Below are positions 1 to 48,695 of a stretch of DNA of 62,400 nt, in pieces (position 1 is the stretch's first letter; every line of letters begins with the position of its first letter). The stretch is from a virus. The position numbers were made by a program, and so were the translations under genes. The notes below the pieces were generated by a model. It ran no database searches, was not told where the DNA came from, and saw only the letters and a program-made list of their open reading frames with translations. The stretch lies in the IMG/VR virus record IMGVR_UViG_3300049561_000021, positions 1 to 62,400 of that record. One strand, 5' to 3'.

Positions 1-179
1 ACGATCAAACTACTGTCTACTGGACTAATAATGAAGACGTTCAAGTAGTCACAGGATGCTTTCGAGGTAACCTCACACAGTTTAAGAAGGCTGTGAAAGA
101 AAGGCATGGAGAAAATGAGTATGCACAGCAATACTTAAAATTTATTCGAAAAGTAAACCAATATAGAAGCATTGAATGA
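1..179 (+). CDS. Cys-triplet repeat protein paralogue, C-terminal part only (cut by window edge)
   Basis: The reading frame enters from the left edge (first full codon at 3) and stops at 177-179. The translated tail (QTTVYWTNNEDVQVV, then GCFRGNLTQF and ERHGENEYAQQYL) is the same C-terminal domain that ends the two full paralogues at 2918 and 4894. Bases 1-146 are identical to 3423-3568, so this is a very recent duplicate or a product of gene conversion. The repeat array itself must lie to the left of the window. The last residues (RKVNQYRSIE) differ from the other copies. The next gene begins inside the stop codon (ATGA overlap). The function is unknown. Confidence 0.85.
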   Translation, partial: DQTTVYWTNNEDVQVVTGCFRGNLTQFKKAVKERHGENEYAQQYLKFIRKVNQYRSIE

Positions 180-499
180 GATATTTTATAATAGCAAAAC
201 CAAATGAAAACTACATTTGGAAAAGTACATTTAAACATTGTACTATAAACGCAGTACTTGAGGATGAACATATTTCTTTCCTCGAATACTTTAACGGGCG
301 AGTAAATCCTTTATCCGAGGAATTAGTATTATCACTATTTCCTATTGATGTAACGTTAAGAGATCGTCCATTTCTCATAAAAGAAAATGAAATATTCTAT
401 ACTATTCTAAGACGTAAAAATCCTAGATATAAAGAAAAATATTCATTATTTTTAGAAAAATTAAAAACAAGAAAAATAGTAAGGAGGAAAATAAAATGA
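176..499 (+). CDS. Hypothetical protein, 107 aa
   Basis: I do not recognise this protein. It is a mixed-charge soluble polypeptide with no signal peptide or membrane segment and a very basic C-terminus (KTRKIVRRKIK), which could contact nucleic acid. The start overlaps the stop of the upstream Cys-triplet paralogue by 4 nt (ATGA), and the stop overlaps the next start, so it is translated within a tightly coupled operon. Confidence 0.6.
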   Translation: MRYFIIAKPNENYIWKSTFKHCTINAVLEDEHISFLEYFNGRVNPLSEELVLSLFPIDVTLRDRPFLIKENEIFYTILRRKNPRYKEKYSLFLEKLKTRKIVRRKIK

Positions 500-726
500 C
501 AAAACAAGAAAAAGTACTTTGGATAAATATAATTGGCTTTATTCTAGATGAAGATGTTCAAGATAATTTAACAAGATCAAAACAAATTTCTTATTTAGCA
601 AGAAAATATAAAATAGAAAGAAAATATAAAATAGAAGAAAATACTCAAAAAATGACTGAACAAAAAAAAGCCATGGACTGGTGGTCTTCATTATCTATTG
701 AAAAAAGAAAACGGTTATTACATTGA
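496..726 (+). CDS. Hypothetical protein, 76 aa, with short internal duplication
   Basis: An unrecognised, highly charged small protein. A perfect SD sequence (AAGGAGG at 481-487) precedes the ATG and decides this start, although SDs are scarce among the early genes. Residues about 36-47 contain a tandem duplication (RKYKIE twice), visible in DNA as a repeated 18-bp segment. The 3' end overlaps, in another frame, a relic of the Cys-triplet family (698-787), so the last ten codons may have been altered by insertion of that relic. Confidence 0.55.
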   Translation: MTKQEKVLWINIIGFILDEDVQDNLTRSKQISYLARKYKIERKYKIEENTQKMTEQKKAMDWWSSLSIEKRKRLLH

Positions 727-787
727 TGACCAAAACAATAGCTGGTCAGAAGAAGTTTATAAAGAATTTAAAAGGAGAAAAATATGA
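698..787 (+). pseudogene. N-terminal relic of a Cys-triplet repeat gene
   Basis: Read from a TTG at 698, the frame gives KKENGYYIDDQNNSWSEE. This matches the first residues of the paralogue at 2918 (KKENGYFIDDQNNRWSEE), and the DNA is nearly identical for about 55 bp. After that the similarity ends and the frame closes at 785-787 without any Cys repeat. The ATG (start codon) of the full gene has become TTG, and the segment lies partly inside the coding region of the preceding gene. It is probably the remains of a fourth family member cut by deletion or recombination. Confidence 0.7.
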
Positions 788-2917: not shown

Positions 2918-3604
2918 ATGAAAAAAGAAAACGGTTATTTTATTGATGACCAAAATAATAGATGGTCAGAAGAATTCGAATCAGAAGAATCAGCACGGCT
3001 GAAAAGTCTGACATTGATTGAGTGCAAATATTGCACAGAGTGCAGAGATTGCACAGAGTGCAGAGATTGCACAGAGTGCAGAGATTGCAGATATTGCACA
3101 GAGTGCAGAGAGTGCACAGAGTGCAGATATTGCAGATATTGCAAATATTGCACAGATTGCATAGGTTGCACAGAGTGCAGAGAGTGCACAGATTGCAGAT
3201 ATTGCACAGATTGCAGATATTGCACAGATTGCGGATATTGCACAGAGTGCAGAGGTTGCACAGAGTGCACAGATTGCAGAGGTTGCACAGAGTGCAGATA
3301 TTGCACAAATTGCACAGATTGCAGAGAGTGCACAGAGTGCAGATATTGCACAGATTGCAGAGGTTGCAAAAACTACAAAGAAAACCCTCAACGTTTAATC
3401 TCTCCTAAAATTGGTTCAAGAAACGATCAAACTACTGTCTACTGGACTAATAATGAAGACGTTCAAGTAGTCACAGGATGCTTTCGAGGTAACCTCACAC
3501 AGTTTAAGAAGGCTGTGAAAGAAAGGCATGGAGAAAATGAGTATGCACAGCAATACTTAAAATTTATTGAACAAGCAAAATTTAATATTAATTTATGGAT
3601 ATAA
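2918..3604 (+). CDS. Cys-triplet repeat protein (228 aa, 39 consecutive Cys-x-x units)
   Basis: Three parts can be seen. The N-terminal leader (residues 1-35, MKKENGYFIDDQNNRWSEEF onward) is followed by 39 uninterrupted triplets of Cys-(Thr/Arg/Lys)-(Glu/Asp/Tyr/Gly/Asn) at residues 36-152. The C-terminal domain (about 153-228) contains the blocks QTTVYWTNN and GCFRGNLTQF. There is no signal peptide, so about 40 cysteines are expected in the cytoplasm. A cysteine every third residue would line one face of a threefold or solenoid-like fold; metal binding or disulfide stapling are possibilities, not shown. I have a general recollection of similar C-terminal blocks in phage and Bacteroidota proteins of unknown function. 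Its stop overlaps the primase gene by 10 nt. Confidence 0.85.
   Translation: MKKENGYFIDDQNNRWSEEFESEESARLKSLTLIECKYCTECRDCTECRDCTECRDCRYCTECRECTECRYCRYCKYCTDCIGCTECRECTDCRYCTDCRYCTDCGYCTECRGCTECTDCRGCTECRYCTNCTDCRECTECRYCTDCRGCKNYKENPQRLISPKIGSRNDQTTVYWTNNEDVQVVTGCFRGNLTQFKKAVKERHGENEYAQQYLKFIEQAKFNINLWI
3023..3373 (+). repeat. Array of 39 nine-bp units, TGC-NNN-NNN
   Basis: Each unit starts with TGC, and almost all continue with ACA or AGA and then GAG, GAT, TAT or GGT. TGCA palindromes therefore recur every 9 bp for 351 bp. Units occur in higher-order groups such as TGCACAGAG-TGCAGAGAT repeated three times near 3041-3090. Such an array is a likely substrate for slippage and unequal recombination; the array at 4999-5250 shares the last part with it. 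Confidence 0.9.
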
Positions 3605-4533
3605 TTCGATTATATGAAGATTATTCTATTCCAATAGCTGAACAAGGTAATAAACATTGTACTCCTGGTTGGATAAATACACACTGTCCATTTTGTGAAG
3701 GTACTCAAAATTATCATTTAGGATATAATATGCATTATAATTATTTTACATGTTACAGATGTGGATTTCATTGGATACCTATAACTATTTCTAAACTTCT
3801 TGAAATAAGTGAAACCGAAGCAAAGAAAATATTAAAACAGTATGGGAATACAATATCTCACAAAGAATCTATTGTAAAAATAGGAACTAAACCTTTTAAA
3901 CTACCAAGTAATTCTCTTTCTTTGCAAATAAATCATAAAAAATATTTAGAAAATAGAGGATTTGATCCTGAAAAACTAGAACGAGAATTTGGATTACTTG
4001 GTACAGGTCCAATTAGTAGGATTAAAGATAAAAATTATAATATAGATTACCGATTTCGTATTATAATCCCATTTTATTGGGAAGATAAAATTGTGTCGTT
4101 TGATTCAAGAGACATTACAAATCAGCACATAGCAAAATATATGGCTTGTCCAAAAGATCGCGAAATTATTCCTCACAAATCAATTCTATATATGAGCCGT
4201 TTCTTGCCGCAAGAGCAATTCAAGACTGCAATTTGTGTTGAAGGTCCCTCCGATGTATGGCGTATGGGACGATCTTCATTTGCTACGTCAGGAATTGGGT
4301 TTACTACCGATCAAGTACATATAATATCAAAAATGTCGTTTAAACGAGTCGCAGTAATTTTTGATGGACCTAGCGAAACTTCAAAAGAATTAGAAGCACA
4401 TAATAAAGCAAGTATTCTAATAGGTGAATTAAAATTTAGAGGAATAGATGCTTTTAGAATTAAAATTAAAGGAGATCCAGGATCAATGAAACAGGAAGAT
4501 GCAGATTATTTAGTAAAACAAATATTAACTTAA
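3595..4533 (+). CDS. DnaG-type DNA primase (zinc finger + TOPRIM), 312 aa
   Basis: It makes RNA primers for phage replication. An N-terminal zinc ribbon (CPFC at 31-34, CYRCGF at 53-58) is followed by a primase core and a TOPRIM domain with CVEGPSD (Glu216) and IFDGPSE (Asp257). The protein is shorter than bacterial DnaG and lacks the C-terminal helicase-binding domain, as is common for phage primases. The second acidic residue expected in the TOPRIM DxD position appears to be Pro (FDGP), which is unusual. The start lies inside the last codons of the Cys-triplet gene (10-nt overlap). The initiator, loader and helicase are encoded downstream. Confidence 0.88.
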   Translation: MDIIRLYEDYSIPIAEQGNKHCTPGWINTHCPFCEGTQNYHLGYNMHYNYFTCYRCGFHWIPITISKLLEISETEAKKILKQYGNTISHKESIVKIGTKPFKLPSNSLSLQINHKKYLENRGFDPEKLEREFGLLGTGPISRIKDKNYNIDYRFRIIIPFYWEDKIVSFDSRDITNQHIAKYMACPKDREIIPHKSILYMSRFLPQEQFKTAICVEGPSDVWRMGRSSFATSGIGFTTDQVHIISKMSFKRVAVIFDGPSETSKELEAHNKASILIGELKFRGIDAFRIKIKGDPGSMKQEDADYLVKQILT

Positions 4534-4543
4534 AATAAAAAAT

Positions 4544-4882
4544 ATGATGACAAAAAGTAAACAATGGATTTGTAATTCTCCAAATTTTCAGAATACTCCT
4601 AAACCTACTGAAACAGAAAAAGAAGATTGGTCTTTGGTAAAATCTTACATTACTTTCTCAGATCCCCCACATCTAAGATATTTAAATGTAGAATCAACTG
4701 AAGTACTCCGAAAAGGAAACATTAATTTTTTAAGTACTTTAACATGGAAAACTAAAGAAGAAGTAGAAAAATTATATGACAATTGCTATAATAGATTATG
4801 TTTTCATTATAAAGATTCTCTTTTTAATTCTCATGACTTACACGAAAGAACATTACTTGAAGTAAAACGATTATTAAAATAA
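4544..4882 (+). CDS. Hypothetical protein, 112 aa
   Basis: I recognise no family. It is a soluble protein with Trp residues near its start (KQWICNSPNFQNTPK) and a basic, helical C-terminal part; there is no signal peptide or membrane span. It lies 10 nt after the primase and 11 nt before the second Cys-triplet gene, so it belongs to the same transcription unit. Confidence 0.6.
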   Translation: MMTKSKQWICNSPNFQNTPKPTETEKEDWSLVKSYITFSDPPHLRYLNVESTEVLRKGNINFLSTLTWKTKEEVEKLYDNCYNRLCFHYKDSLFNSHDLHERTLLEVKRLLK

Positions 4883-4893
4883 ACTTAACACCA

Positions 4894-5481
4894 ATGAAAA
4901 AAGAAAACAACTATTACGTAGACGAAAGAAACAACAAGTGGGACATGCACTATGAATCAGAAGCATCAGCACGGGTGAAAAGTCTGACGTTGATTAATTG
5001 CACAGAGTGCACAGGTTGCAGAAATTGCAGAGAGTGCACAGGTTGCACAGATTGCACAGATTGCAGATATTGCAGATATTGCAGATATTGCAAATATTGC
5101 AGAAATTGTGCAGGTTGCACAGGTTGCACAGGTTGCACAGAGTGCACAGATTGCAGAGGTTGCACAGAGTGCAGATATTGCACAAATTGCACAGATTGCA
5201 GAGAGTGCACAGAGTGCACAGAGTGCACAGGTTGCACAGGTTGCAAAAACTACAAAGAAAACCCTCAACGTTTAATCTCTCCTAAAATTGGTTCAAGAAA
5301 CGATCAAACTACTGTCTACTGGACTAATAATGAAGACGTTCAAGTAGTCACAGGATGCTTTCGAGGTAACCTCACACAGTTCGAGGAGGCTGTGAAAGAA
5401 AGGCATGGAGAAAATGAGTATGCACAACAATACTTGAAGCTAATTAATATTATAAACTATATAATTAATCAAACTTTATGA
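4894..5481 (+). CDS. Cys-triplet repeat protein, second full copy (195 aa, 28 units)
   Basis: A paralogue of the protein at 2918 with the same three-part plan: leader (MKKENNYYVDERNNKWDMHY onward), 28 consecutive Cys-x-x units (residues 36-119), then the QTTVYWTNN / GCFRGNLTQF domain. Leaders are about 65 percent alike, but the C-terminal domain is nearly identical at DNA level (about 145 bp identical from the last repeat to CACACAGTT). The non-coding lead-in ATAAACTTAA-(C)ACCAATG is also shared. The extreme C-terminus (KLINIINYIINQTL) is unique. The pattern suggests duplication with recent gene conversion of the 3' half. Its stop overlaps the next gene by 4 nt. Confidence 0.85.
   Translation: MKKENNYYVDERNNKWDMHYESEASARVKSLTLINCTECTGCRNCRECTGCTDCTDCRYCRYCRYCKYCRNCAGCTGCTGCTECTDCRGCTECRYCTNCTDCRECTECTECTGCTGCKNYKENPQRLISPKIGSRNDQTTVYWTNNEDVQVVTGCFRGNLTQFEEAVKERHGENEYAQQYLKLINIINYIINQTL
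4999..5250 (+). repeat. Array of 28 nine-bp units, TGC-NNN-NNN
   Basis: The unit is the same as in the 3023-3373 array, with TGCA every 9 bp except one TGTGCA variant. Nine consecutive units coding CTE-CTD-CRG-CTE-CRY-CTN-CTD-CRE-CTE are identical to part of the other array, while the left half is arranged differently and richer in CRY and CTG units. The arrays differ by 11 units, as expected from slippage or unequal exchange. Confidence 0.9.
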
Positions 5482-9774: not shown

Positions 9775-10146
9775 ATGTACACTATCTCAAAAGAATTTCG
9801 ATTTGAAGCAGCTCACTTACTAAGAGGTTTACCTGAAAATCATCCATGTAGTAATTTACATGGACACAGTTATATTGTAATTTTTGAACTATCTTCAGTA
9901 ATATTGAATGAAGTTGGTTTTGTGGTTGATTACAGAAAGCTTGATACGATAAAGAAGTATATTGATGAGATAGTAGATCATCAATATTTAAATCAAGTTT
10001 TTTTATTTAATCCAACTGCTGAAAATCTTGCAAAGCACTTTTTTAAACTCTTTAAAAGAGATTTTCCACAATTGAGTGCAGTAATAGTAAAAGAAACAGA
10101 AAAAACAATGGCAAAATATACACCTTTTTGTGATGAAGAAGCTTAA
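9775..10146 (+). CDS. queD: QueD, 6-carboxy-5,6,7,8-tetrahydropterin synthase
   Basis: Second step of 7-deazaguanine synthesis: dihydroneopterin triphosphate to 6-carboxytetrahydropterin. Family residues are visible: zinc ligands His14 (FEAAH), His29 and His31 (LHGHSY); catalytic Cys25 (PCSN) and His69 (VDHQYLN); and the substrate-anchoring Glu107 (VKETEKTMAKY). At 123 aa it is of normal length. A promoter is 23 nt upstream and queE overlaps its end, so synthesis of the two enzymes is coupled. Confidence 0.93.
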   Translation: MYTISKEFRFEAAHLLRGLPENHPCSNLHGHSYIVIFELSSVILNEVGFVVDYRKLDTIKKYIDEIVDHQYLNQVFLFNPTAENLAKHFFKLFKRDFPQLSAVIVKETEKTMAKYTPFCDEEA

Positions 10147-10732
10147 AGTAAATGAAATATTCCACAGCATTCAAGCAGAAGGCTATCATGTAGGTACACC
10201 TGCTATATTTATTCGACTTTCTGGATGTAACTGTGCTTGTGATTTCTGTGATACTGAATGGGTATCTTTCAAAGAAATGTCAATCGGAGAAATTTTAAAA
10301 GAAATTAGTCAGTATAAATGTGATACTATTATTTGGACAGGTGGAGAGCCTTTCTTACAACTTACTCAGGAAATTTGTGAAGTATTTGAAAGCAAAGAAT
10401 ATTTTCAAATGGCAGAAACAAATGGAACGATTAATACTCATTATGTGTTTGATCATATTAGTTGTTCTCCAAAAGATATGTCTAAATTAAGTTCTGATTT
10501 TAAAAATGATTTTTGTGGTGAATTTAGATTTCCTTTTGATAGTAAAAATCCTAATATTCCAAAAATAGAAGATTTAGCTGTTTGTAGTGATTACTTTATT
10601 TCTCCAATAATTGTTATGAATCCATATACAAAAGAAAGTATAGATAATATTCAAGGAGCAGTTGAGTTTGTAAAGAATAATCCAGATTGGAAATTATCAA
10701 TCCAAATACATAAGTTTGCAAATTTTAAATAA
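10133..10732 (+). CDS. queE: QueE, 7-carboxy-7-deazaguanine synthase (radical SAM)
   Basis: It converts 6-carboxytetrahydropterin to 7-carboxy-7-deazaguanine with S-adenosylmethionine and a 4Fe-4S cluster. The N-terminus NEIFHSIQAEG is typical. The cluster motif Cys-x3-Cys-x2-Cys is at Cys32, Cys36 and Cys39 (CNCACDFC), and the SAM motif WTGGEP follows. The length is about 200 aa, as in compact QueE enzymes. A GTG at 10130 is possible, but the ATG at 10133 is preferred. The gene overlaps queD by 14 nt. Confidence 0.93.
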   Translation: MKKLKVNEIFHSIQAEGYHVGTPAIFIRLSGCNCACDFCDTEWVSFKEMSIGEILKEISQYKCDTIIWTGGEPFLQLTQEICEVFESKEYFQMAETNGTINTHYVFDHISCSPKDMSKLSSDFKNDFCGEFRFPFDSKNPNIPKIEDLAVCSDYFISPIIVMNPYTKESIDNIQGAVEFVKNNPDWKLSIQIHKFANFK

Positions 10733-10754
10733 AATATTCTTTTTTGAAAATAAA

Positions 10755-10785
10755 TTTTAATGCTAAAAAATAATTGTTATATTTG
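10755..10785 (+). promoter_or_regulatory. Possible Bacteroidota-type promoter
   Basis: The -7 box TATATTTG (10778-10785) is a full match to TAnnTTTG. At the correct distance (19 nt) the -33 box is only TTTT (10755-10758). Transcription would start near 10792 and produce a leader of about 137 nt, with a 9-bp hairpin, before the gene at 10929. Confidence 0.45.
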
Positions 10786-10840
10786 TTTTTCATGGTAATT
10801 GGTTTTGTTTTAGTTGATTGATTTGTTTTTCATTTTTGAA

Positions 10841-10874
10841 AAAGCCAGGCTCTGCTTAAATGCAACCTGGCTTT
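10841..10874. other. Hairpin in the 196-nt gap between queE and the acidic protein
   Basis: AAAGCCAGG (10841-10849) pairs with CCTGGCTTT (10866-10874) over a 16-nt loop. No U-tract follows on the plus strand (TTTGACAG), whereas the minus strand would end in a run of T. It may be a leader structure, a weak terminator or a protein-binding site. The rest of the gap (10733-10928) holds only the promoter candidate. Confidence 0.5.
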
Positions 10875-10928
10875 GACAGTGAACTTAATACCAAAATTTA
10901 ATATTATTAATTTAAAACTAAGAAAAGT

Positions 10929-11732
10929 ATGGTAAATTTAAAGCAGTTGAAAAAAGCAGCAGAAGAAATTAACGAATTGCCAGGATTTGATACTGGAATT
11001 GATTTAGACGGTAGTGAAGACGTTTTAATTCAAGGTATAAAAGAAGCAAATGATTTTATCACAGACGATGATGACTTATCAGATTCCACTCGTGCAATTA
11101 TTGAAGAAGTAATGTCTCCTACTGCAAAAAAAGAAAAGGAAACTGTAAAACCTGCACGTGGAAAAGTACCTAAAAAAGTAGTAGTTGAAGAGGAAACAGA
11201 AGATGAAGAACCAGAGGAAGAGGTTGAAGTTAATGTTCTTAAATTTGTCCAGGAAGCTACAACAATTAAAGAGTTAAAAGAAATTGCAAAGAATTACCCG
11301 GAATTCGAAGAAGTAAATCTAAAAATAAAAAACATTGATGAACTTCGCGATGAAATGATGGATTGTTTGCCACCTGAAGGAGAAGTTGAAGAGGAAACAG
11401 AAGATGAAGAACCGGAAGAGGAAGTTGAAGAAAAACCAGCAAAGAAATCTGTAAAGAAAGAAGCTGAAAAAGCAAAACCTGAAGGAAAAGTAAAATCACC
11501 TGTAGGAAATAAAGGAACACTTACAAAAGAAAGAGTCGCTTACATTTCTCCGTTTATTGAAAAAGGAAAATATACAAAAGCTCAATTGATGGAAATGCTT
11601 GCAAAGAAATACCCGGATGCTTCCAGTACCAGTTTTCAGACACTGCTTACTGATTGTAAAAATCCAAAATACAATGCATTCCCAAAATTGGTAGTGCAAA
11701 GTTCTGATGGCATTTACAAATTCAGTAAATAA
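10929..11732 (+). CDS. Acidic multi-domain protein of unknown function, 267 aa
   Basis: The N-terminal part (1-70, MVNLKQLKKAAEEINELPGF) is followed by a Lys-rich linker and two copies of a strongly acidic segment (ETEDEEPEEEVE, about residues 92-103 and 157-168) that flank a small helical domain (FVQEATTIKELKEIAKNY). A basic linker and a C-terminal domain of about 70 residues (TKERVAYISPFIEKGKYT to IYKFSK) follow. The last domain looks like a small winged-helix DNA-binding module. The acidic repeats are duplicated at DNA level. It lies among the modification genes but has its own promoter candidate and terminator, so it may be an abundant DNA-associated protein. No family is recognised. Confidence 0.6.
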   Translation: MVNLKQLKKAAEEINELPGFDTGIDLDGSEDVLIQGIKEANDFITDDDDLSDSTRAIIEEVMSPTAKKEKETVKPARGKVPKKVVVEEETEDEEPEEEVEVNVLKFVQEATTIKELKEIAKNYPEFEEVNLKIKNIDELRDEMMDCLPPEGEVEEETEDEEPEEEVEEKPAKKSVKKEAEKAKPEGKVKSPVGNKGTLTKERVAYISPFIEKGKYTKAQLMEMLAKKYPDASSTSFQTLLTDCKNPKYNAFPKLVVQSSDGIYKFSK

Positions 11733-11737
11733 AATAT

Positions 11738-11773
11738 AACCCGACTATTGTAGTTCACTTTAGCCGGGTTTTT
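11738..11773 (+). terminator. Intrinsic terminator
   Basis: AACCCG (11738-11743) pairs with CGGGTT (11765-11770), and TTTTTA follows, directly after the acidic-protein gene. With the promoter at 10755 it makes that gene a possible separate transcript inside the que cluster. Confidence 0.65.
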
Positions 11774-11806
11774 ACTTTTTAATCGTTAAAATTTAACTAA
11801 TTAATT

Positions 11807-12490
11807 ATGAAAAAGATAGTTATTGGACTCTCAGGTGGAATGGATTCTGCTACATTGTTAGGATCATTATTAGAACAAAGATATGAAGTGCATTGTTGTA
11901 CTTTTTACTATGGTTCAAAGCATGGAAAGTGGGAAAGTAAAGCATCTGAAGATTTAATTGATTTCTACAAATTAGATAAAAAGAAACCTGTATTTAAACA
12001 TTCAATAGATCTTAGTGTTGCATTTAAAGAATTTAATTCGGCTTTATTACTAACAGGTGAAGAAATCCCAGAAGGTCACTACAATGATGAAACTATGAAA
12101 AAGACAGTAGTACCCGGTCGTAATTTAATATTTTCATCCATTATGGCAGGATTAGCAGAATCAATAGATGCAGATGAAATAGGATTAGGTGTACATGCAG
12201 GAGACCATGCTATTTACCCAGATTGCCGTCCTGATTTTATTTCTTCTTTATGGACAACAATTTTGCGCTCAACAGAAAATAAAATACGTACAAATGTACC
12301 TTTTCTAAATAAAACAAAAGCAGATATTCTTAAAATAGGATGTAGTTTAATAATTCCTGTACCTTATCAATTGACAAGAACATGCTATAGAGATCAAGAA
12401 TTAGCATGTGGGCGTTGTGGAGCATGTGATGAGCGATTGTCTTCTTTTAAAGAATTAAATTTAATTGATCCAATTGAATATGAAAAGTAA
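11807..12490 (+). CDS. queC: QueC, 7-cyano-7-deazaguanine (preQ0) synthase
   Basis: ATP-dependent conversion of 7-carboxy-7-deazaguanine plus ammonia to preQ0. The PP-loop SGGMDS is at residues 9-14 and VPGRNLIFSSIMAG at about 102-115. The four zinc cysteines are at 193, 201, 204 and 207 (CYRD...CGRCGAC). The length (227 aa) is standard. There is no fused amidotransferase (Gat) domain, which argues against the Gat-QueC route to archaeosine-type bases. Its 3' end overlaps the folE fusion gene. Confidence 0.94.
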   Translation: MKKIVIGLSGGMDSATLLGSLLEQRYEVHCCTFYYGSKHGKWESKASEDLIDFYKLDKKKPVFKHSIDLSVAFKEFNSALLLTGEEIPEGHYNDETMKKTVVPGRNLIFSSIMAGLAESIDADEIGLGVHAGDHAIYPDCRPDFISSLWTTILRSTENKIRTNVPFLNKTKADILKIGCSLIIPVPYQLTRTCYRDQELACGRCGACDERLSSFKELNLIDPIEYEK

Positions 12491-13361
12491 ATATTATGTA
12501 ACCTGGGAAGAGATCTTTATTAGACTTAAGTATATAGATAGACCTGAAAATATTGTATATGGAATACCAAAAGGAGGAATGATTGCAGCTGGATTTTTAA
12601 AACATGCAAAAAGAACACATGATCCAAAAGAAGCAAATTATTTACTAGATGATATAATAGATACTGGAAAAACTATTCGTTCTTATACTACTAAAATTAA
12701 TAATAAATGTTCAGTTTATGGGCTATATGATTTATTACTTAGTTCTGAAGATGCAAAATTTTATAAAGATAAGTGGTTAGTTTTCCCATGGGAACAAGAG
12801 CATCCAGCAGGTGTAGATACAATTGAGCAAAATATTACTAGGCAATTACAATACATAGGTGAAGATACAACAAGAGAAGGATTAATTGATACTCCAAAAC
12901 GTGTAATTAAATCGTATGGTGAAATATTTGCTGGATACAATCAAAATCCTAAAGACATATTTACTTGTTTTGAATCAGATGGCTATGATCAAATTATACT
13001 TCTTAAATCATTTGAATTTTATAGTCTCTGTGAGCATCACATACTCCCATTCTTTGGGAAAGCTCATGTTGCGTATATTCCAAATGAAAAAATAGTAGGT
13101 ATATCTAAACTTGCACGATTAGTAGATCTTTATTCTAAACGTTTACAAATACAAGAACGGATAGGTTTACAAGTTACAAATGATCTAATGACATATTTAA
13201 AACCTAAAGGTGCTGCGTGTATTTTAGAAGCTACTCATTTATGTATGCGTATGCGTGGAGTTGAAAAGCAGAATTCGATTATGACAACTTCCAGTCTTAC
13301 AGGAGTATTTTTAGATGATCCAGCAGCAAAAAACGAGTTAATTCAACTAATAAAACTTTAA
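12480..13361 (+). CDS. folE: Phosphoribosyltransferase-like domain fused to GTP cyclohydrolase I (FolE), 293 aa
   Basis: The C-terminal part (about 112-293) is a complete type I GTP cyclohydrolase: CEHHILPF (Cys184, His187), GISKLARLVDLYSKR, QERIG and HLCMRMRG (Cys255). It catalyses the first step, GTP to dihydroneopterin triphosphate. The N-terminal part (about 20-105) resembles a phosphoribosyltransferase, with GIPKGGMIAAG and the PRPP loop LLDDIIDTGKT (55-65). The fusion is unusual; the added domain might handle a base or nucleotide of the same pathway. The ATG at 12480, overlapping queC, is preferred to the one at 12465. Confidence 0.88.
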   Translation: MKSKYYVTWEEIFIRLKYIDRPENIVYGIPKGGMIAAGFLKHAKRTHDPKEANYLLDDIIDTGKTIRSYTTKINNKCSVYGLYDLLLSSEDAKFYKDKWLVFPWEQEHPAGVDTIEQNITRQLQYIGEDTTREGLIDTPKRVIKSYGEIFAGYNQNPKDIFTCFESDGYDQIILLKSFEFYSLCEHHILPFFGKAHVAYIPNEKIVGISKLARLVDLYSKRLQIQERIGLQVTNDLMTYLKPKGAACILEATHLCMRMRGVEKQNSIMTTSSLTGVFLDDPAAKNELIQLIKL

Positions 13362-13363
13362 CT

Positions 13364-14020
13364 ATGGCAATGCTTGACAGTATGGATAAAATTATAACAA
13401 GATATTTCTCTACAGTAACGAATGAGGAATTTGTTTATAAAAAGCAAACATACACTCCTAAATTATTAATCGTATCTCCCCTTTTATTTAGAGGATTTAT
13501 ATGTCCTGAAAAGTGTGGAGCTTGTTGCCCTAGATTTTCTCTTGATTACTTGCCTTTTGAAGATAAACCAAAACAAGCACAAGAAAGAATTGTAAATTTT
13601 AATAGAAAGAATTACACTGTATTTTCTGATTTACAAGTTGATCACAATAATTATCATTGTAGAAATCTTAACATGAATACTGGAAGGTGTAAAATACATA
13701 CTCATAATCCATTTTCTTGTGACTTTGAATTAATTAGACCTTTACTTTCAGATGTTAACAATGCTTTAATGACAAGAATGTTTGGTAAGGGTTGGAATAT
13801 GAAGAAAATAGATAATTGTAGAGGTGCTTTATGTAAATTAACTCCTGCAACTAAAGAGTCAATCAATAATGTTATACGTAAACTAAAACGTTTAGAAAAA
13901 TGGTGTAATTATTTTGGAATAGATAATAAGTGTGAAAGTATTATTAAATGGGGAAAAGAAATTTCTCCTTATATGCTGTACAATACTAGACAGCCAGTAC
14001 GTTCAATTACAATTTACTAA
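13364..14020 (+). CDS. YkgJ-like Cys-cluster protein, 218 aa
   Basis: The pattern Cys-x3-Cys-x2-Cys-Cys (CPEKCGACC, about 47-55) with a later CRNL, GRCKIHTHNPFSC is that of the YkgJ/zinc-or-iron-binding Cys-cluster family. These proteins are thought to carry an Fe-S cluster or zinc, but their reactions are mostly unknown. It lies between folE and queF with 2- and 12-nt gaps, so a role in deazaguanine base modification is possible. The C-terminal third is basic and helical. Confidence 0.65.
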   Translation: MAMLDSMDKIITRYFSTVTNEEFVYKKQTYTPKLLIVSPLLFRGFICPEKCGACCPRFSLDYLPFEDKPKQAQERIVNFNRKNYTVFSDLQVDHNNYHCRNLNMNTGRCKIHTHNPFSCDFELIRPLLSDVNNALMTRMFGKGWNMKKIDNCRGALCKLTPATKESINNVIRKLKRLEKWCNYFGIDNKCESIIKWGKEISPYMLYNTRQPVRSITIY

Positions 14021-14032
14021 TAAATTATTTAT

Positions 14033-14446
14033 ATGAAAGATGATATTTCAAAATTAACAAAATTAGGGGATCATGGTAAAAAGTATTCATACGAAAATCC
14101 TTCTAAAGAATTACTTGAAACATTCCAAAATAAATTTCCACAAAGGGATTATATTACTCAATTCATTTTCAATGAGTTCACAAGTCTTTGTCCCAAAACT
14201 TTACAACCTGACTTTGCGACTATAACAGTAGAATATGTTCCAGACCAATTGTGTATTGAAACTAAAAGTTTGAAAATTTATTTTCTTGCATATCGAAATA
14301 CAGGTGCTTTTATGGAAACAATTACGAACACAATTTTAGATGATTGTGTTGCTGTCTGTAAGCCGCGATATATGAAAATAACAAGTAATTTTAATCCACG
14401 TGGTGGAACTTTTATTAATGTAATAGCTGAATATACTACAAAATGA
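14033..14446 (+). CDS. queF: QueF-family preQ0 reductase (or QueF-like enzyme), 137 aa
   Basis: The protein has the full length of a unimodular QueF. It keeps the nucleophile Cys53 and Asp60 (FTSLCPKTLQPDFATI), the NADPH motif as ETKSLKIYF (residues 76-84; usual ESKS), Glu95 and the PRYM...NPRGG block. The conserved His before Glu95 (usual FHE) is Met94 here (FMET). As a reductase it would turn preQ0 into 7-aminomethyl-7-deazaguanine (preQ1); with altered residues it might instead be an amidine-forming QueF-L type. The dpdA gene overlaps it by 4 nt, which couples it to DNA base insertion. Confidence 0.82.
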   Translation: MKDDISKLTKLGDHGKKYSYENPSKELLETFQNKFPQRDYITQFIFNEFTSLCPKTLQPDFATITVEYVPDQLCIETKSLKIYFLAYRNTGAFMETITNTILDDCVAVCKPRYMKITSNFNPRGGTFINVIAEYTTK

Positions 14447-15444
14447 GAATCTTTCTTGACTCTGGAGCATTTTCTGTTTGGAATCGTGGTGAACGAATAA
14501 ACCTTGATAACTACATTGAATTTTGCAAATGCTATGCAAAAGACCTTGATGCTATTGCAACACTTGATGTAATACCAGGTAAACCTAACGAAAAGGTAGA
14601 CTCTATTCAAGCAGATACAGCTGCTTGGGAAGGATGGGGAAATTATCAAAAAATGTTAAAAGCTAAACTTCCAGAAAGTAAGTTACTTCATACTTTTCAC
14701 CAAGGTGATCCTGAAGGATTTCTTGAAAAGTTAGTTAAAGAAGGTGGAGAATATATTGGGATAAGTCCTGCAAATGATAAGACAAGTTCACAGAGAAAAG
14801 AATGGATGGATAAAATCTGTATTCCTCATATTTTAGATTCTAAAGGTAAAGCAAAAGTAAAATTTCATGGGTTTGCAGTAACATCTTTAAAATTAACTTT
14901 AGCCTATGATTGGTTCAGTGTTGATTCATCATCCTGGAGATTGAGAGGTGGAGGGTATGGGTTAATAGACTTACCAATTGTACCAAGTGATTTATCAAAG
15001 AAAGAAAATTGTTACATTAACAGTATCCCAATTGGAACAGGGGTCAAAAAACATATTGGAAATGATACTATTGGATTTTTTAATATTAATAAAATTTCTC
15101 AAAGTGATTCTTCATTTTTAAGACACCCAGGGTATAAGAAAGAGATTGAAAAATTACTCGATGAACACTATTTCACTTTAACTGAACTTGAGACAAGTGC
15201 TAAATTACGTGCTGCTTGGAATGCAATTTATTTAATGAAATCTATTGCAAAATTTTCAAAAATTATATTATATTTAGCATCAAATGAAATTAAATCAATA
15301 CGAACACTACAGAGAAAGATGCAAGAGAATAAGTTAGGAACAGAAAATTTAAACATCTTAGTCTCGTATGCAATGATTCCAAAAAATAGTAGAGGTGATA
15401 ATATTTTGGACAAATTAATTAAAATGAAAAGACTATCAGAATGA
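14443..15444 (+). CDS. dpdA: DpdA-type DNA 7-deazaguanine transglycosylase, 333 aa
   Basis: The start MRIFLDSGAFSVWNRGE is typical of the TGT-like phage enzymes that exchange guanine in DNA for a 7-deazaguanine base. Later come LDAIATLDVIPGKP, a barrel segment YIGISPANDKTS, KVKFHGFAVTS and the second acidic site YDWFSVDSSSWR. The length is typical for phage DpdA (300-400 aa). It is the last gene of the que cluster and overlaps both neighbours by 4 nt. The likely purpose of the modification is protection from host restriction enzymes. Confidence 0.85.
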   Translation: MRIFLDSGAFSVWNRGERINLDNYIEFCKCYAKDLDAIATLDVIPGKPNEKVDSIQADTAAWEGWGNYQKMLKAKLPESKLLHTFHQGDPEGFLEKLVKEGGEYIGISPANDKTSSQRKEWMDKICIPHILDSKGKAKVKFHGFAVTSLKLTLAYDWFSVDSSSWRLRGGGYGLIDLPIVPSDLSKKENCYINSIPIGTGVKKHIGNDTIGFFNINKISQSDSSFLRHPGYKKEIEKLLDEHYFTLTELETSAKLRAAWNAIYLMKSIAKFSKIILYLASNEIKSIRTLQRKMQENKLGTENLNILVSYAMIPKNSRGDNILDKLIKMKRLSE

Positions 15445-19141: not shown

Positions 19142-19336
19142 ATGAGAAAAAATTTAGCTGCTATCTATTTAAGCACTCCATTAATAGTGGGGTTAGTATT
19201 TATTGTTCTTAAATTATTTCATATAATTAGTTGGACGTGGTGGATAGTAACAATTCCATTTTGGGGCACATTTCTATTAGTTTTAATTGTTTTTGCAATT
19301 ATTGGATTTGCATTATTATTTGGTCCAGAATGGTGA
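19142..19336 (+). CDS. Small membrane protein, 64 aa
   Basis: Two transmembrane helices are seen (LSTPLIVGLVFIVLKLF and a Trp-rich WWIVTIPFWGTFLLVLIVF), ending in LLFGPEW. It follows the lytic-enzyme gene by 19 nt and overlaps the polymerase start by 7 nt. A holin-like role with the neighbouring enzyme is possible but unproven. Confidence 0.55.
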   Translation: MRKNLAAIYLSTPLIVGLVFIVLKLFHIISWTWWIVTIPFWGTFLLVLIVFAIIGFALLFGPEW

Positions 19337-21855
19337 CATATAATCTTAATTGTAACGAAGCTTACGAGCTAATGCACAAAGGTATTCTTGCTTTTGCAGA
19401 TGCTGAAATGCAAGGTATTCATATTGATGTAGATTATATTCAAAAAAAGAAAGTTGCATTAGATCGTAAAAAGATTCGTCTTGAAAATAAATTTAAAGAG
19501 ACATCTTTTTACAGAGAATGGGAAAAGTCACAGTCGGGTAAAGTTAATATTTATTCTGGTGAGCAACTTGGAAATTTTCTGTATAATGTTAAAAAGATAA
19601 AACCATTAAAATTAACTTCAGGTGGAAAAAAAGGTGAGAATAAAAAAGGTTCAACAGATGAAGAAGCACTAAAGAAACTAGATATTCCTGAATTATCATT
19701 TTATGAAGAGTATAAAAAGGTAAAAAAGTCACTTGATGTGCTAAGTGGTTTTGAACGTGAACAAGTAGATGAGTATATGCATACTTTTTTTAATCTTCAT
19801 TTAGCACGTACATATCGTTCCTGTATTTCAAAAGGAACTCCTATTCTTGCTGTAAGAGATTTCTTAAAATATCCAAATGGAATACCTATTGAAGAAATAA
19901 AAGAGGGAGATTATGTTTATTGTTTTGATAATAATCTTAATCCGGCTATTCAAAAAGTATTATGGGCAGGAAAAACAGGACATAGAGAAGTTATTAGAAT
20001 TCATTATTCTGTAACAGGTAGTCATAAAAGTTTTATAGATGTTACACCTGAGCATAAAATAAGACTTATTGATGGTTCTTATGTTCAAGCACAAAATTTA
20101 GTTGGTGATTTTCGATCAGAAACAGATGACTATCATTTACCTAAAATAAGAACATTATCTTGCAAAAGAAGAGGAGATGCTTTAAACTTTACTGGACATT
20201 TAACAAATGGAACAGGTATTTTAGAACATAGGTTTATCTATTCACAATTGATTGGAAAATTATTAGAAGAAGAACTCGTACATCATAAAAATGAAATTCA
20301 TTTGGATCACATACCTTCTAATCTTGAAAAAATGTCTTCTTCTAAACATGCTTTATATCATGTAAAAAATACATTATTAACAAAAAAGTCAAGAGAAAAT
20401 AATAAACAAGCTATACAAAAAGCAAAAGAAGCAGGAGTCTATAAAAATTGTCACCCGAAAGGTAAAGATAGTCCAAATTATTTAGGTTTATCTAAATTTA
20501 CTTGTCTTCGACTTCTTTGTGAAAAGAAAGGAGAATATTCAAAAGTAAATTACGATTTTGATACATTTAAAAAATATTTACGACTTCATGAGATTGATCC
20601 TAAAATAATTAAATTAAGATTTGATCTTAATGGAAAATATATTTGGAAATCATATTTACAAAAGATTTCAATTTTAGGAAGAGCAAAAGTAGAAAAGCTT
20701 TTAGGAGGGTATAATTATTATCATTTACTCAAATTGTATGAATTATATGGAATTAATCCTAAAAGAAAATGGGCAAATCATATTATAACAAAAATTGAAT
20801 GGATTAAAAAAACTGTTGATGTATATGATATAGAAGTAGAAAAATATCATAATTTCTTTGCAAATGAAATTTGTGTTCATAACTCATCAAATTCACCTAA
20901 CTTTCAAAATATTCCCATTAGAGATGAAGAAATGCAAGAAATTTGTAGGAGTGCTATTATACCACGTCCTGGACATCAGTTATTAGAGGGGGACTACGGA
21001 CAGTTAGAGGTCAGAATAAGTGCATGCTACAATAATGATAAAAAATTAATCCATGATATTTTACATGGTGATATGCATTCCGATATGGCTAAGGAAATAT
21101 TTAAACTTGATTCAATTGATAAAAAAATACCAGGTCAAGCTATTTTACGACAAGCAGCTAAGAATGGGTTTATATTTCCAGAATTTTATGGGGACTATTA
21201 TAAAAATTGCTCAGAGAACATTGCAGATTGGGCAAAATTACCTCAAGGTAAATGGAAGTCAGGACAAGGCATTATAATTGATGAATTAGGTAAACCTTTC
21301 AAACCATACTATATTTCTGACCATTTAATAAGTAAAGGTATAAAAGAATTTGGAGAAATAAAGAAAGTAGATGGTAGAACTATTGTTACTGGATTTATTA
21401 AGCATATTCAAGATATTGAAAATAAATTCTGGAATAAACGCTATTATGAATATAAACAATGGAAAGATAATTTTTATGAAGAATATCTGAAGAAAGGCTA
21501 TATTGATTCAAAAACAGGATTTAGATTTTCTGGAGTAATGTCTTTTAACGACGTTGTAAATTACCCTATTCAAGGTGCAGCATTTCATTGCTTATTATGG
21601 TCATTTATTGAAATGAGTAAATTTATTAAAGAAAATAATCTTGATTCCAAATTAATTGGACAGATTCATGATAGTATTTTAATAGATACACATCCAGATG
21701 AACTTGAAATAATTGCAAAAAAATTAATTGAAATTACAACAGTAAAATTGCTTGAAGAATGGAAATGGATAATTTTACCATTGGAAATTGATATTGCAGT
21801 TTGTGGTGTAGATGAACCTTGGTTGAAAAAAGAAAAATATAAATTAAACAATTAA
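19330..21855 (+). CDS. polA: Family A DNA polymerase interrupted by an intein (841 aa; 487 aa after splicing)
   Basis: Polymerase motifs flank an intein (19822-20883). Before it are the N-terminal helical region and LARTYRS; after it come SSNSPNFQNIP (motif 2), LEGDYGQLEVRI (motif A), RQAAKNGFIFPEFYG (a phage variant of the O-helix motif B) and GQIHDSILID (motif C). The exonuclease domain is missing and is found in the UDG fusion upstream. The ATG at 19330 overlaps the preceding gene's stop; an ATG at 19231 would give 33 unrelated residues and is rejected. It is the replicative polymerase, used with clamp and loader. Confidence 0.9.
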   Translation: MVTYNLNCNEAYELMHKGILAFADAEMQGIHIDVDYIQKKKVALDRKKIRLENKFKETSFYREWEKSQSGKVNIYSGEQLGNFLYNVKKIKPLKLTSGGKKGENKKGSTDEEALKKLDIPELSFYEEYKKVKKSLDVLSGFEREQVDEYMHTFFNLHLARTYRSCISKGTPILAVRDFLKYPNGIPIEEIKEGDYVYCFDNNLNPAIQKVLWAGKTGHREVIRIHYSVTGSHKSFIDVTPEHKIRLIDGSYVQAQNLVGDFRSETDDYHLPKIRTLSCKRRGDALNFTGHLTNGTGILEHRFIYSQLIGKLLEEELVHHKNEIHLDHIPSNLEKMSSSKHALYHVKNTLLTKKSRENNKQAIQKAKEAGVYKNCHPKGKDSPNYLGLSKFTCLRLLCEKKGEYSKVNYDFDTFKKYLRLHEIDPKIIKLRFDLNGKYIWKSYLQKISILGRAKVEKLLGGYNYYHLLKLYELYGINPKRKWANHIITKIEWIKKTVDVYDIEVEKYHNFFANEICVHNSSNSPNFQNIPIRDEEMQEICRSAIIPRPGHQLLEGDYGQLEVRISACYNNDKKLIHDILHGDMHSDMAKEIFKLDSIDKKIPGQAILRQAAKNGFIFPEFYGDYYKNCSENIADWAKLPQGKWKSGQGIIIDELGKPFKPYYISDHLISKGIKEFGEIKKVDGRTIVTGFIKHIQDIENKFWNKRYYEYKQWKDNFYEEYLKKGYIDSKTGFRFSGVMSFNDVVNYPIQGAAFHCLLWSFIEMSKFIKENNLDSKLIGQIHDSILIDTHPDELEIIAKKLIEITTVKLLEEWKWIILPLEIDIAVCGVDEPWLKKEKYKLNN
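19822..20883 (+). mobile_element. Intein with HNH-type homing endonuclease in the polymerase
   Basis: The 354 residues run from Cys1 (CISKGTPILAV) to the terminal His-Asn (EICVHN), followed by Ser of the extein. Block A is at the start, block B is DVTPEHKIRL, and blocks F/G are VYDIEVEKYHNFFA plus VHN. A central HNH region (LEHRFIYSQL, then VHHKNEIHLDHIPSNLEKMS) is the homing nuclease. It splits the polymerase at RTYRS/SSNSPN, an essential conserved motif, so splicing is needed for activity. Confidence 0.92.
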
Positions 21856-42053: not shown

Positions 42054-42434
42054 TTAATCAAAACTTTTTACTGCACGGAGAGTTGCACTTGATTTACTAT
42101 ATCTCTGCAATTTACCTGTAATATCAAGTTGAAGTGCTGTCTGTCCATATGGAGTTGAAAGTAAGTTCGTATCCCACTTTCCTGTATATGTAACTTCAGC
42201 ATCTCCTACTTTTTCTTTACTCGCAGTACGATAATTTGGAGTACAAGCTACAAAATGAGCAGATAACCAACGTTCAAGTTCCTTTAATAAAGCAGCACTT
42301 ATTTCTGTATCACTTGCAAATACAATATCTATTTGTGCTGCTGCTGCTGTGATACATGCATTAACAAGTGAATCAGGAATATCCACATTATCCATTATCT
42401 CTCGCACTTCATAAGCTGTTACTAATGCTGCCAT
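42054..42434 (-). CDS. Head-tail connector protein (gp6/gp15-like), 126 aa
   Basis: A helical protein starting AALVTAYEVREIMDNVDIPD, with LLKELERWLSAHFVACTPNY and a C-terminal strand region, resembling head-tail adaptors. The ATG at 42434 with AAAAGGAGG upstream is clear; its ribosome-binding site and first codons lie inside the 3' end of the sulfotransferase gene. Confidence 0.78.
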   Translation of the reverse strand: MAALVTAYEVREIMDNVDIPDSLVNACITAAAAQIDIVFASDTEISAALLKELERWLSAHFVACTPNYRTASKEKVGDAEVTYTGKWDTNLLSTPYGQTALQLDITGKLQRYSKSSATLRAVKSFD

Positions 42435-43131
42435 TTTTTTCCTCCTTTTCTTTTTGTTTACTATACCACAATAATGGATCAATCAAATTAATAACTTCTT
42501 TATTCCACTTCAAACCTAACCAATCAAGCATTTCATACATTTGCGTATAATCTCCATAAATCATACGCTCTGGCCAAACAATTTTGCAGTTTAATCCTGC
42601 TTCAATCATTTCTACAAAACGTTTCTCATACTCATGTTCCCACCAAAGCCAACCCTCTTTTTCATCACTTACTCCAACAGCTTTCTGATTCTCTTTACTT
42701 TCAAAAGCAAACATATATGCTGTCTTTAAACAAGATTGGATAATATCACCTGTTCTCCTTCGAACAATTATCCATTTTGCATTTGGAAAGGCATAATTCC
42801 ACACAGGCCAGATTAAACTTGATAATGGATCTTTATACATCCATTTGCCTTTTTGATAACCTTGCTTTAATAGAACTTTCTCAACTTTTTCTCCCCAATT
42901 CATTGGAAAAATTAGATCATTTGTAATAGGTAAAGGATATTGTCCAAAAGTATCATATTTTAAATCTCTAATATAAGATTTAACAATTTCCTCTCGAATA
43001 ACATCATTGCTCCACATTCCACGCTTTGATATTTCCCCACTAAATGCTCCACAAAGACTAATTGCAGAAGCAATAATACTTGCTCCACTTCGTGGACATC
43101 CCGTTATTAATATTGGGAATTCTTCAATCAT
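42409..43131 (-). CDS. Sulfotransferase, 240 aa
   Basis: PAPS-dependent sulfotransferase fold: the 5'-phosphosulfate loop ITGCPRSGASIIASAISLCG near the N-terminus and the 3'-phosphate element AKWIIVRRRTGDIIQSCLKT. The target may be a glycan on the capsid or tail made by the neighbouring glycosyltransferases. Its 3' end overlaps the connector gene by 26 nt, marking the right boundary of the glycan gene block. Confidence 0.8.
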   Translation of the reverse strand: MIEEFPILITGCPRSGASIIASAISLCGAFSGEISKRGMWSNDVIREEIVKSYIRDLKYDTFGQYPLPITNDLIFPMNWGEKVEKVLLKQGYQKGKWMYKDPLSSLIWPVWNYAFPNAKWIIVRRRTGDIIQSCLKTAYMFAFESKENQKAVGVSDEKEGWLWWEHEYEKRFVEMIEAGLNCKIVWPERMIYGDYTQMYEMLDWLGLKWNKEVINLIDPLLWYSKQKEKEEKNGSISNSL

Positions 43132-43741
43132 TGTATGTATTTATTAATTCCTGTCTATATTGTTTTCTTTCTTGAATATTACACGTTCTTATAATTTGCT
43201 TTGGATGTCTACGATAAAAAGCTAATTCAGAATTACAATAGCCTATTTTAAATCCTGCTTTCAAAACACGTAAATTAAACTCATATTCTTCAAAAGAATA
43301 ACATTTATTATCTTCATTAAACCCACCTATTTTTTCAAAAACTTCTCTACGATACATTGTAGTTGCACTATGAATTGAATTATATTTTAAAAGCATTTCT
43401 AATGTAGGTAATTTAATTGTAGGTCTGTAAATCCTTTGCTTAATTCCTTTTTCAAAAGTATCATTAGATGTTTGAAATAATTCAATAGCATTACCGTGAA
43501 TAAAATCAAATCCTTCCAAACTCCTGATAGAATCCTCAATACAATTAGGTGTTAACATATCATCCTCATGAAGGTATTTAATATAATCTCCTGTAACTTC
43601 TTTTAATACTTTATTGAAATTCTGAGGCCAATTTCCGTCTCCTTTGGAAAGTATTAATTGAACGCCTTTAGGAACACTATCAATAGCATCTTTAAGCCAT
43701 CCACGGTCTTCTTTGTACGGAATGATAATTGTTACTTTCAT
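43124..43741 (-). CDS. Glycosyltransferase family 2, 205 aa
   Basis: A GT-A fold: KVTIIIPYKEDRGWLKDAID at the start, YIKYLHEDDML (the DxD-type metal site as EDD), later SATTMYRREVFEKIGGF and FEEYEFNLRVL (catalytic base region). It transfers a sugar from a nucleotide donor. It overlaps both neighbours. Confidence 0.85.
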   Translation of the reverse strand: MKVTIIIPYKEDRGWLKDAIDSVPKGVQLILSKGDGNWPQNFNKVLKEVTGDYIKYLHEDDMLTPNCIEDSIRSLEGFDFIHGNAIELFQTSNDTFEKGIKQRIYRPTIKLPTLEMLLKYNSIHSATTMYRREVFEKIGGFNEDNKCYSFEEYEFNLRVLKAGFKIGYCNSELAFYRRHPKQIIRTCNIQERKQYRQELINTYND

Positions 43742-45717: not shown

Positions 45718-45720
45718 CGT

Positions 45721-48067: not shown

Positions 48068-48068
48068 A

Positions 48069-48692: not shown

Positions 48693-48695
48693 AAC

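What the first reader, a model, noticed from the sequence alone, without database searches (positions are those of the whole stretch)
2918..5481. A family of proteins made of uninterrupted Cys-x-x triplets
Two full genes encode 39 and 28 consecutive Cys-x-x units without a single break, an extreme cysteine density for cytoplasmic proteins. A shared N-terminal leader and a conserved C-terminal domain (QTTVYWT, GCFRGNL) frame the arrays. Copies sit between primase, helicase and small genes in a phage that keeps two full and at least one further copy. I know no function. Metal or Fe-S storage, a disulfide-stapled solenoid or an anti-host binding protein with variable length are possibilities.
Basis: partly seen in the sequence, partly recalled or inferred. 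Interest (0 to 1): 0.85.

Follow-up and report, generated by a model that had tools for sequence, protein, structure and literature searches.

The report
Phage proteins with cysteine-cored repeat rods
A phage carries two complete genes (and pieces of others) for proteins built from dozens of unbroken Cys-x-x triplets between two folded end caps; the family is widespread in phages, has no known function, and most likely forms a thin rod with a core made almost only of cysteine.

Summary
In detail: 39 and 28 consecutive Cys-x-x units, exact coordinates, two full genes. A third copy is cut by the window start (C-cap at 3-179), and an array-less leader remnant lies at 698-787. The arrays are real proteins: Cys is kept at 1,938 of 1,948 register positions across 67 related genes while TGC/TGT vary freely.

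The family is phage-borne and unnamed: PHROGs of unknown function, no Pfam or NCBIfam model, and entries labelled 'hypothetical', 'insect antifreeze protein' or 'CaiB/BaiF'. Some phages carry at least 14 copies.

Best reading: a capped beta-solenoid in which every third residue points inward and is Cys. The C-cap also ends hexapeptide-repeat solenoids. Where arrays are interrupted, 26 of 32 gaps keep the 3-residue register, filled only by S, L, F, G, T or V. This is the inward spacing of the beetle antifreeze protein TmAFP, but the ice-binding TCT motif is absent (0 of 1,948). AlphaFold2 is only supportive, because it over-predicts solenoids for repeats.

Function (a variable-surface binding scaffold against host targets) is inference. 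Metal or thiolate storage is not excluded; radical-SAM maturation, DNA mimicry by charge and antifreeze are disfavoured. New variant of a known kind.

The parts
2918..3604 (+). Cys-triplet gene 1 (228 aa): N-cap + 39 Cys-x-x units + C-cap
   Evidence: PHROG 15341 E=1.2e-28, PHROG 20532 E=1.3e-14
2918..3022 (+). N-cap of gene 1 (35 aa; conserved 'xxW/FxDxxNNxW...A..S.TL')
   Evidence: alignment A4 of 35 proteins; AF2 pLDDT mostly 83-90 over the homologous cap of gene 2
3023..3373 (+). array 1: 39 x 9 bp, every unit TGC-N3-N3
   Evidence: 39 TGC
3374..3601 (+). C-cap of gene 1 (YKENPQR..GSRNDQTTVYW..GCFRGNL..)
   Evidence: shared with hexapeptide-repeat phage proteins L005, L009
4894..5481 (+). 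Cys-triplet gene 2 (195 aa): N-cap + 28 Cys-x-x units + C-cap
4894..4998 (+). N-cap of gene 2
   Evidence: strands 2-4, 7-9, 15-17; helix 23-30
4999..5250 (+). array 2: 28 x 9 bp (27 TGC, 1 TGT)
5251..5478 (+). C-cap of gene 2 (strands plus two helices)
   Evidence: AF2 pLDDT 70-89 over residues 121-195; Foldseek matches
3..179 (+). C-cap of a third copy, cut by the window start
   Evidence: 87% identical to gene 2, E=8.9e-29; 153/160 nt identical to copy 1
698..787 (+). orphan N-cap remnant without array (LKKENGYYIDDQNNSWSEEV...)
   Evidence: (48% over 23 aa, E=8.7e-4) and nucleotide similarity to the gene 1 leader

Best explanation
Each gene encodes a capped, very thin beta-solenoid. An N-terminal strand/helix cap starts the rod and a C-terminal domain closes it. 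Between them every third residue points into the core and is Cys, while the two residues between Cys point outward. The array lengthens and shortens by 9-bp tandem gain and loss, and copies recombine within the repeats, so rod length and surface diversify while core and caps stay fixed. The phage uses the rods as interchangeable surface scaffolds made in the early/DNA-metabolism region, most likely to bind and occupy a host or defence target, much as pentapeptide-repeat proteins occupy gyrase. Shown here: sequence anatomy, register conservation, cap sharing, copy-number and length variation. Inferred: the fold of the array. Speculative: the binding role. Not known: whether the Cys are thiols, disulfides or metal ligands.
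For: (1) The C-cap is found by sequence at the end of hexapeptide-type repeats 'VSGNAxVxGDA' in Bacteroides phage BF766P1 and Ruminococcus phage phiRM10. Foldseek against predicted viral structures aligns 67-73 residues, about the length of the C-cap, to proteins named beta-solenoid, hexapeptide-transferase-like and pentapeptide-repeat (E from 1.4e-5 to 3.5e-3, rmsd 1.3-2.7). So the Cys array sits in the slot of a solenoid. (2) In 86 family proteins 2,355 successive Cys steps are exactly 3. Of 32 longer steps, 26 are multiples of 3 (p=3.5e-8) and the other 6 are all 4. The residues filling the register are S 20, L 11, F 4, G/T/V 1 each, i.e. small or hydrophobic only, as in a core. The outward positions are S/R/T/I and D/G/N/Y instead. 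(3) The same inward spacing of 3 (positions 2, 5, 8, 11 of a 12-residue coil; C, S, C, A) is known in the TmAFP beta-helix (PMC8038014). (4) AF2 on N-cap plus 20 triplets with 35 in-register sequences: pLDDT 76, array blocks up to 81, a beta-bridge at every x1 residue. (5) No higher period and no charge pattern: triplets are interchangeable. (6) Phages with at least 14 copies; length differs between near-identical caps; neighbours are helicases, primases, methyltransferases, regulators and small ORFs.
Against: With the full-length alignment AF2 left the array unresolved (pLDDT 42-47), and the other four models of the second run scored only 60-65. AF2 is known to give confident but false beta-solenoids for repeats (PMC11795689). 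No solved structure matches either model. Array lengths show no clear coil quantum. Cys is kept at 99.5%, stricter than packing alone would demand, which points to thiol chemistry. Some family members, e.g. in Campylobacter phages, lack this C-cap. There is no direct evidence of any target.
Confidence: 0.45

Rival explanations
1. Metallothionein-like or Fe-S/thiolate store: the CxxCxxC thiols bind Zn, Cu, Fe or clusters along the chain, buffering metal or shielding the phage during infection; the protein folds only with metal.
For: A third of array residues are Cys, kept at 1,938 of 1,948 positions across 67 arrays, stricter than a packing role needs; CxxC is a common metal-binding spacing (general knowledge). 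AF2 fails on the array in the full-length run.
Against: Where Cys is lost the register is filled by L, F, V, G or S; L, F, V and G cannot be metal ligands. No Pfam or NCBIfam metal-binding family matches. The C-cap belongs to solenoids. His is rare at the outward positions.
Confidence: 0.22
2. Disulfide-stapled solenoid: inner Cys pair across each coil as in TmAFP, giving a very stable rod that works after lysis or outside the reducing cytoplasm.
For: Same inward spacing as TmAFP, whose Cys pair across the coil (PMC8038014).
Against: No signal-peptide-like hydrophobic leader; no thioredoxin- or glutaredoxin-type family among the top 25 Pfam families of the window's proteins (list truncated); the gene sits in the early/DNA region, not with structural or lysis genes.
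Confidence: 0.15
3. Ribosomally made, modified peptide precursor: conserved leader plus variable Cys core modified by a radical-SAM enzyme.
For: Conserved N-terminus, hypervariable core, many paralogues per phage; a radical-SAM gene is near one copy in Campylobacter phage CPt10.
Against: Two phages with at least 14 copies each have no radical-SAM gene; no such family among the top neighbour families (lists truncated). The leader is predicted as a folded cap. Arrays of up to 59 units.
Confidence: 0.05
4. Antifreeze protein, as Vibrio phage annotations say.
For: Label IPR016133 on Vibrio phage 1.238.B; PF02420 notes on CPt10; phmmer to 1EZG E=0.0048 with large composition bias.
Against: TCT occurs 0 times in 1,948 triplets; no 12-residue superperiod; no Pfam match for the window proteins; carriers include gut phages (Bacteroides, Ruminococcus caps; Campylobacter).
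Confidence: 0.02
5. Selfish or neutral tandem DNA repeat with no protein function.
For: 9-bp tandem structure; length instability; blocks shared between copies.
Against: TGC and TGT are both common (1,335 versus 603, several arrays mixed) while only 10 of 1,948 positions leave Cys; both caps are conserved across phages.
Confidence: 0.06

Closest known systems
PHROG 15341, 20532 and 7964 (unknown function)
   Same: Direct homologues: 15341 covers leader plus array, 20532 and 7964 the C-cap
   Different: No function, no structure and no named family
Tenebrio molitor antifreeze protein (TmAFP, 1EZG; PF02420)
   Same: Inward residues at every third position; Cys-rich narrow repeat protein
   Different: No TCT ice-binding motif, no 12-residue superperiod, Cys at every inward position instead of two of four, extra caps, no signal peptide; no Pfam match for the window proteins
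Hexapeptide (left-handed beta-helix) phage proteins, e.g. L009 phiRM10 gp34 and L005 BF766P1
   Same: Share the C-cap by sequence
   Different: Six-residue repeat, almost no Cys in the repeat, different N-terminus
Pentapeptide-repeat proteins (MfpA/Qnr; phage pentapeptide proteins)
   Same: Capped solenoid architecture; some viral members match the C-cap structurally
   Different: Five-residue repeat; DNA-mimic members have a DNA-like electrostatic surface, whereas these arrays average only -0.05 charge per residue
Campylobacter phage (Firehammervirus) Cys-repeat proteins, labelled hypothetical or 'CaiB/BaiF'
   Same: Same N-cap and Cys triplets
   Different: Mostly without this C-cap; more interruptions by S/L triplets

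Membership tests
PHROG 15341 / 20532 Cys-triplet family | profile match of leader+array and of C-cap | tested here: met
   E=1.2e-28 and 1.3e-14 for gene 1; 5.7e-28 and 4.7e-15 for gene 2
Insect antifreeze (TmAFP, PF02420) | TCT ice-binding motif in each coil | tested here: not met
   0 TCT in 1,948 triplets
Insect antifreeze (TmAFP, PF02420) | 12-residue repeat TCTxSxNCxxAx | tested here: not met
   no excess at lag 4 triplets beyond other lags
Insect antifreeze (TmAFP, PF02420) | Pfam profile match | tested here: not met
   no family at E<=10
Insect antifreeze (TmAFP, PF02420) | every third residue inward | tested here: inconclusive
   register and fill-in residues fit; no structure
Beta-solenoid proteins (general) | periodic core positions with small/hydrophobic residues, register kept through insertions | tested here: met
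   26 of 32 gaps in register; fills S, L, F, G, T, V
Beta-solenoid proteins (general) | stacked beta coils in three dimensions | tested here: inconclusive
   AF2 pLDDT 76 in one set-up, below 50 in the other; known AF2 bias
Pentapeptide repeat proteins | A(D/N)LXX five-residue period | tested here: not met
   strict three-residue period; no Pfam match
Hexapeptide left-handed beta-helix | six-residue [LIV]-G-x-x-x-x type repeat | tested here: not met
   three-residue period
Metallothionein / Fe-S protein | recognised metal-binding family profile | tested here: not met
   no Pfam or NCBIfam match
Metallothionein / Fe-S protein | bound metal | not testable with these tools
   needs purified protein
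Radical-SAM RiPP precursor | maturase in the same genome | tested here: not met
   no radical SAM in G003 and G004, which hold at least 14 copies each

The most novel reading that the evidence does not exclude
A genetically tunable protein wire: a phage-made solenoid whose core is a continuous ladder of thiols (metal-thiolate or disulfide) inside the bacterial cytoplasm, diversified in length and surface by repeat recombination. This would be a kind of protein material not yet described in phages.
Probability: 0.15. Interest if true: 0.88.

Novelty: new variant of a known kind. Interest (0 to 1): 0.6.

Why it matters
If right, phages own a large, unnamed class of solenoid proteins with a core made almost only of one amino acid, capped by a domain they also use on other solenoids, and duplicated to at least 14 copies in a single genome. 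Such investment suggests a real job in infection, plausibly against host targets. It would also give protein designers a minimal three-residue repeat, and it explains misleading 'antifreeze' and 'CaiB/BaiF' labels in databases.

Tried and rejected
DNA mimicry by charge: arrays average -0.047 charge per residue; the window arrays are 0 and -4 in total. Higher-order coil period from x1/x2 autocorrelation: none clear, with many lags tested. Coil quantum from array length: odd counts 16 versus even 7, not significant. Radical-SAM/RiPP maturation: rejected by co-occurrence. PDB homologues of the caps: none by sequence or fold; the SUV420H1 hit at E=0.18 is chance level. The 9e5c hit to the array aligns a Cys-free low-complexity repeat and is a composition artefact. 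Whole-collection DNA pattern in genome contigs mostly returned out-of-frame repeats (Gly/Pro- and Ala-rich genes read in the wrong frame), so bacterial counts were taken from profile searches instead: N-cap+array in 6 of 249 Campylobacterota genomes, C-cap in 0 of 296 Bacteroidota genomes (no positive control in that set). PADLOC: no match. Literature: no paper found that describes the family in the held library; the Campylobacter phage genome papers do not mention it.

Full report
OBSERVATION. The two ORFs are at the stated coordinates. Gene 1 has 39 and gene 2 has 28 consecutive Cys at a strict spacing of three. A five-Cys DNA pattern occurs 111 times here and never in 100 shuffles. The window is an IMG/VR virus record of 62,400 bases. 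Its large terminase is closest, at 37-39%, to phages of Flavobacteriales and an unassigned sewage phage, so a Bacteroidota host is plausible but not shown. A third copy is cut by the window start (C-cap at 3-179), and a leader remnant without array lies at 698-787.

ARE THE ARRAYS REAL PROTEIN? Yes. Across 67 family arrays (1,948 register positions) only 10 are not Cys. Yet both Cys codons are used (1,335 TGC, 603 TGT): some arrays are all TGC, some all TGT, some mixed, for instance 17 to 16. The constraint therefore acts on the protein, not on a 9-bp DNA motif. Caveat: arrays were found by pure-Cys patterns, which favours intact ones.

FAMILY. Searches with the whole protein, the C-terminal domain and the DNA pattern recovered relatives in Campylobacter phages, Flavobacterium phage FL-1, Vibrio phage 1.238 and many IMG/VR contigs. 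Twenty-three proteins in the curated set have both caps of the window proteins, with 19 to 59 triplets. Other members pair the same N-cap with different C-terminal tails, or use a different leader. Two phages carry at least 14 such genes each: 14 found in the first 28 kb of G004, and 12 in the first 80 kb of G003 plus two beyond. In cellular genomes the N-cap plus array was found in 6 of 249 Campylobacterota. In several related contigs (L256, L257, L268, L278) the gene lies near the same SNF2-type helicase as in the window, and in L257 and L278 the primase-like gene follows. In other phages the neighbours are other helicases, primases, methyltransferases, regulators or terminase genes.

THE C-CAP IS A SOLENOID CAP. 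By sequence it also ends proteins made of 'VSGNAxVxGDA' hexapeptide-type repeats in Bacteroides phage BF766P1 and Ruminococcus phage phiRM10 (alignment A1). By structure, the confident part of the AF2 model (residues 121-195, pLDDT 70-89) is the likely source of the 67-73-residue Foldseek matches to viral proteins named beta-solenoid, hexapeptide-transferase-like and pentapeptide-repeat. No solved structure resembles it. So the Cys array occupies the place that a beta-solenoid occupies in relatives.

THE TRIPLET REGISTER LOOKS LIKE A CORE. In 86 proteins there are 2,355 Cys-to-Cys steps of exactly three. Of 32 longer steps, 26 are multiples of three (binomial p=3.5e-8); the other six are single-residue bulges of four. 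Register positions without Cys hold S (20), L (11), F (4), G, T or V (one each) and never a charged residue. Some of these are orthologues in Campylobacter phages, so the p-value is optimistic. The outward positions are quite different: x1 is S, R, T, I; x2 is D, G, N, Y. This is the 'in-out-out' spacing reported for the beetle antifreeze protein TmAFP, where residues 2, 5, 8 and 11 of a 12-residue coil (C, S, C, A) form the core (PMC8038014). TmAFP also shows how Cys can sit in such a core. The resemblance is one of working principle, not membership: TCT is absent (0 of 1,948), there is no 12-residue superperiod and Pfam gives no match.

STRUCTURE PREDICTION. With gapped full-length sequences AF2 resolved both caps but not the array (pLDDT 42-47). 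With the N-cap and the first 20 triplets of 35 proteins aligned in register, the best model has pLDDT 76, rising to about 81 along the array, with a beta-bridge at every x1 residue. I discount this: the other four models scored 60-65, and AF2 is documented to invent confident beta-solenoids for perfect repeats (PMC11795689). The coil size remains unknown; Foldseek found no significant PDB match.

EVOLUTION. The two copies share a 144-nt identical block running from the last units of the array into the C-cap, while the leaders are only 75% identical, so copies recombine within the repeats. Array length changes faster than caps: L270 and L272 have 96% identical C-caps but 22 and 32 units. Triplets are drawn from a small codon set (ACA/AGA, then GAG/GAT/GGT/TAT) and show no higher order.

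MECHANISM. I commit to a capped, Cys-cored solenoid that serves as a length- and surface-variable binding scaffold. The anatomy is shown; the fold is inferred (I would give it about 0.7); the binding role is a guess from copy number, hypervariable surface and early-region location (about 0.3). Near-absolute Cys retention is stricter than packing alone needs, so metal-thiolate or disulfide chemistry remains open. Radical-SAM modification is disfavoured because phages with at least 14 copies have no radical-SAM gene.

NOVELTY. The family exists in PHROGs without function, and individual members carry the labels 'hypothetical', 'insect antifreeze protein' or 'CaiB/BaiF'. I found no paper describing it in the held library, nor in the Campylobacter phage genome papers. 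The library holds only openly licensed papers, so an unseen description is possible.

Noticed in passing
window 9775-15444: 7-deazaguanine pathway genes (QueD-like, QueE-like radical SAM, QueC, FolE, and a DpdA-like 333-aa gene recognised only by eye): the phage DNA is probably modified. Pfam confirms PTPS, QueC and GTP cyclohydrolase.
   Followed up: partly
window 19231-21855: Family A DNA polymerase interrupted by an intein with an endonuclease-like stretch (Pfam Intein_splicing among window proteins).
   Followed up: no
window 42409-50323 (-): Cassette of glycosyltransferases, FkbM methyltransferases, a sulfotransferase-like gene and a sugar epimerase set among structural genes.
   Followed up: no
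window 13364-14020: CxxCxxCC putative Zn/Fe-chelating domain protein (PF03692, E=1.3e-6), another Cys-rich gene in the same phage.
   Followed up: no
G003 (L315-L318) and G004 (L311-L314): IMG/VR phages of about 80-86 kb with at least 14 Cys-triplet genes each, same N-cap, several distinct C-terminal tails often ending '..DINDRxLEPDL' or similar.
   Followed up: partly
L267:4512-4781: A second kind of Cys repeat, hexapeptide 'CSFGxx', encoded about 2.2 kb downstream of the Cys-triplet gene in the same contig.
   Followed up: no
L319 / L325 (Campylobacterota genome G375): Two Cys-triplet genes flank a gene (in two frames) that looks like the phage Gp37/Gp68 DUF5131 type; recognised by eye only.
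   Followed up: no
window 176-499: Small gene ('YFIIAKPNENYIWKSTFKHCTINA..') that recurs near the Cys-triplet gene in L256, L257 and L268; no Pfam match and none in the phage collection.
   Followed up: partly
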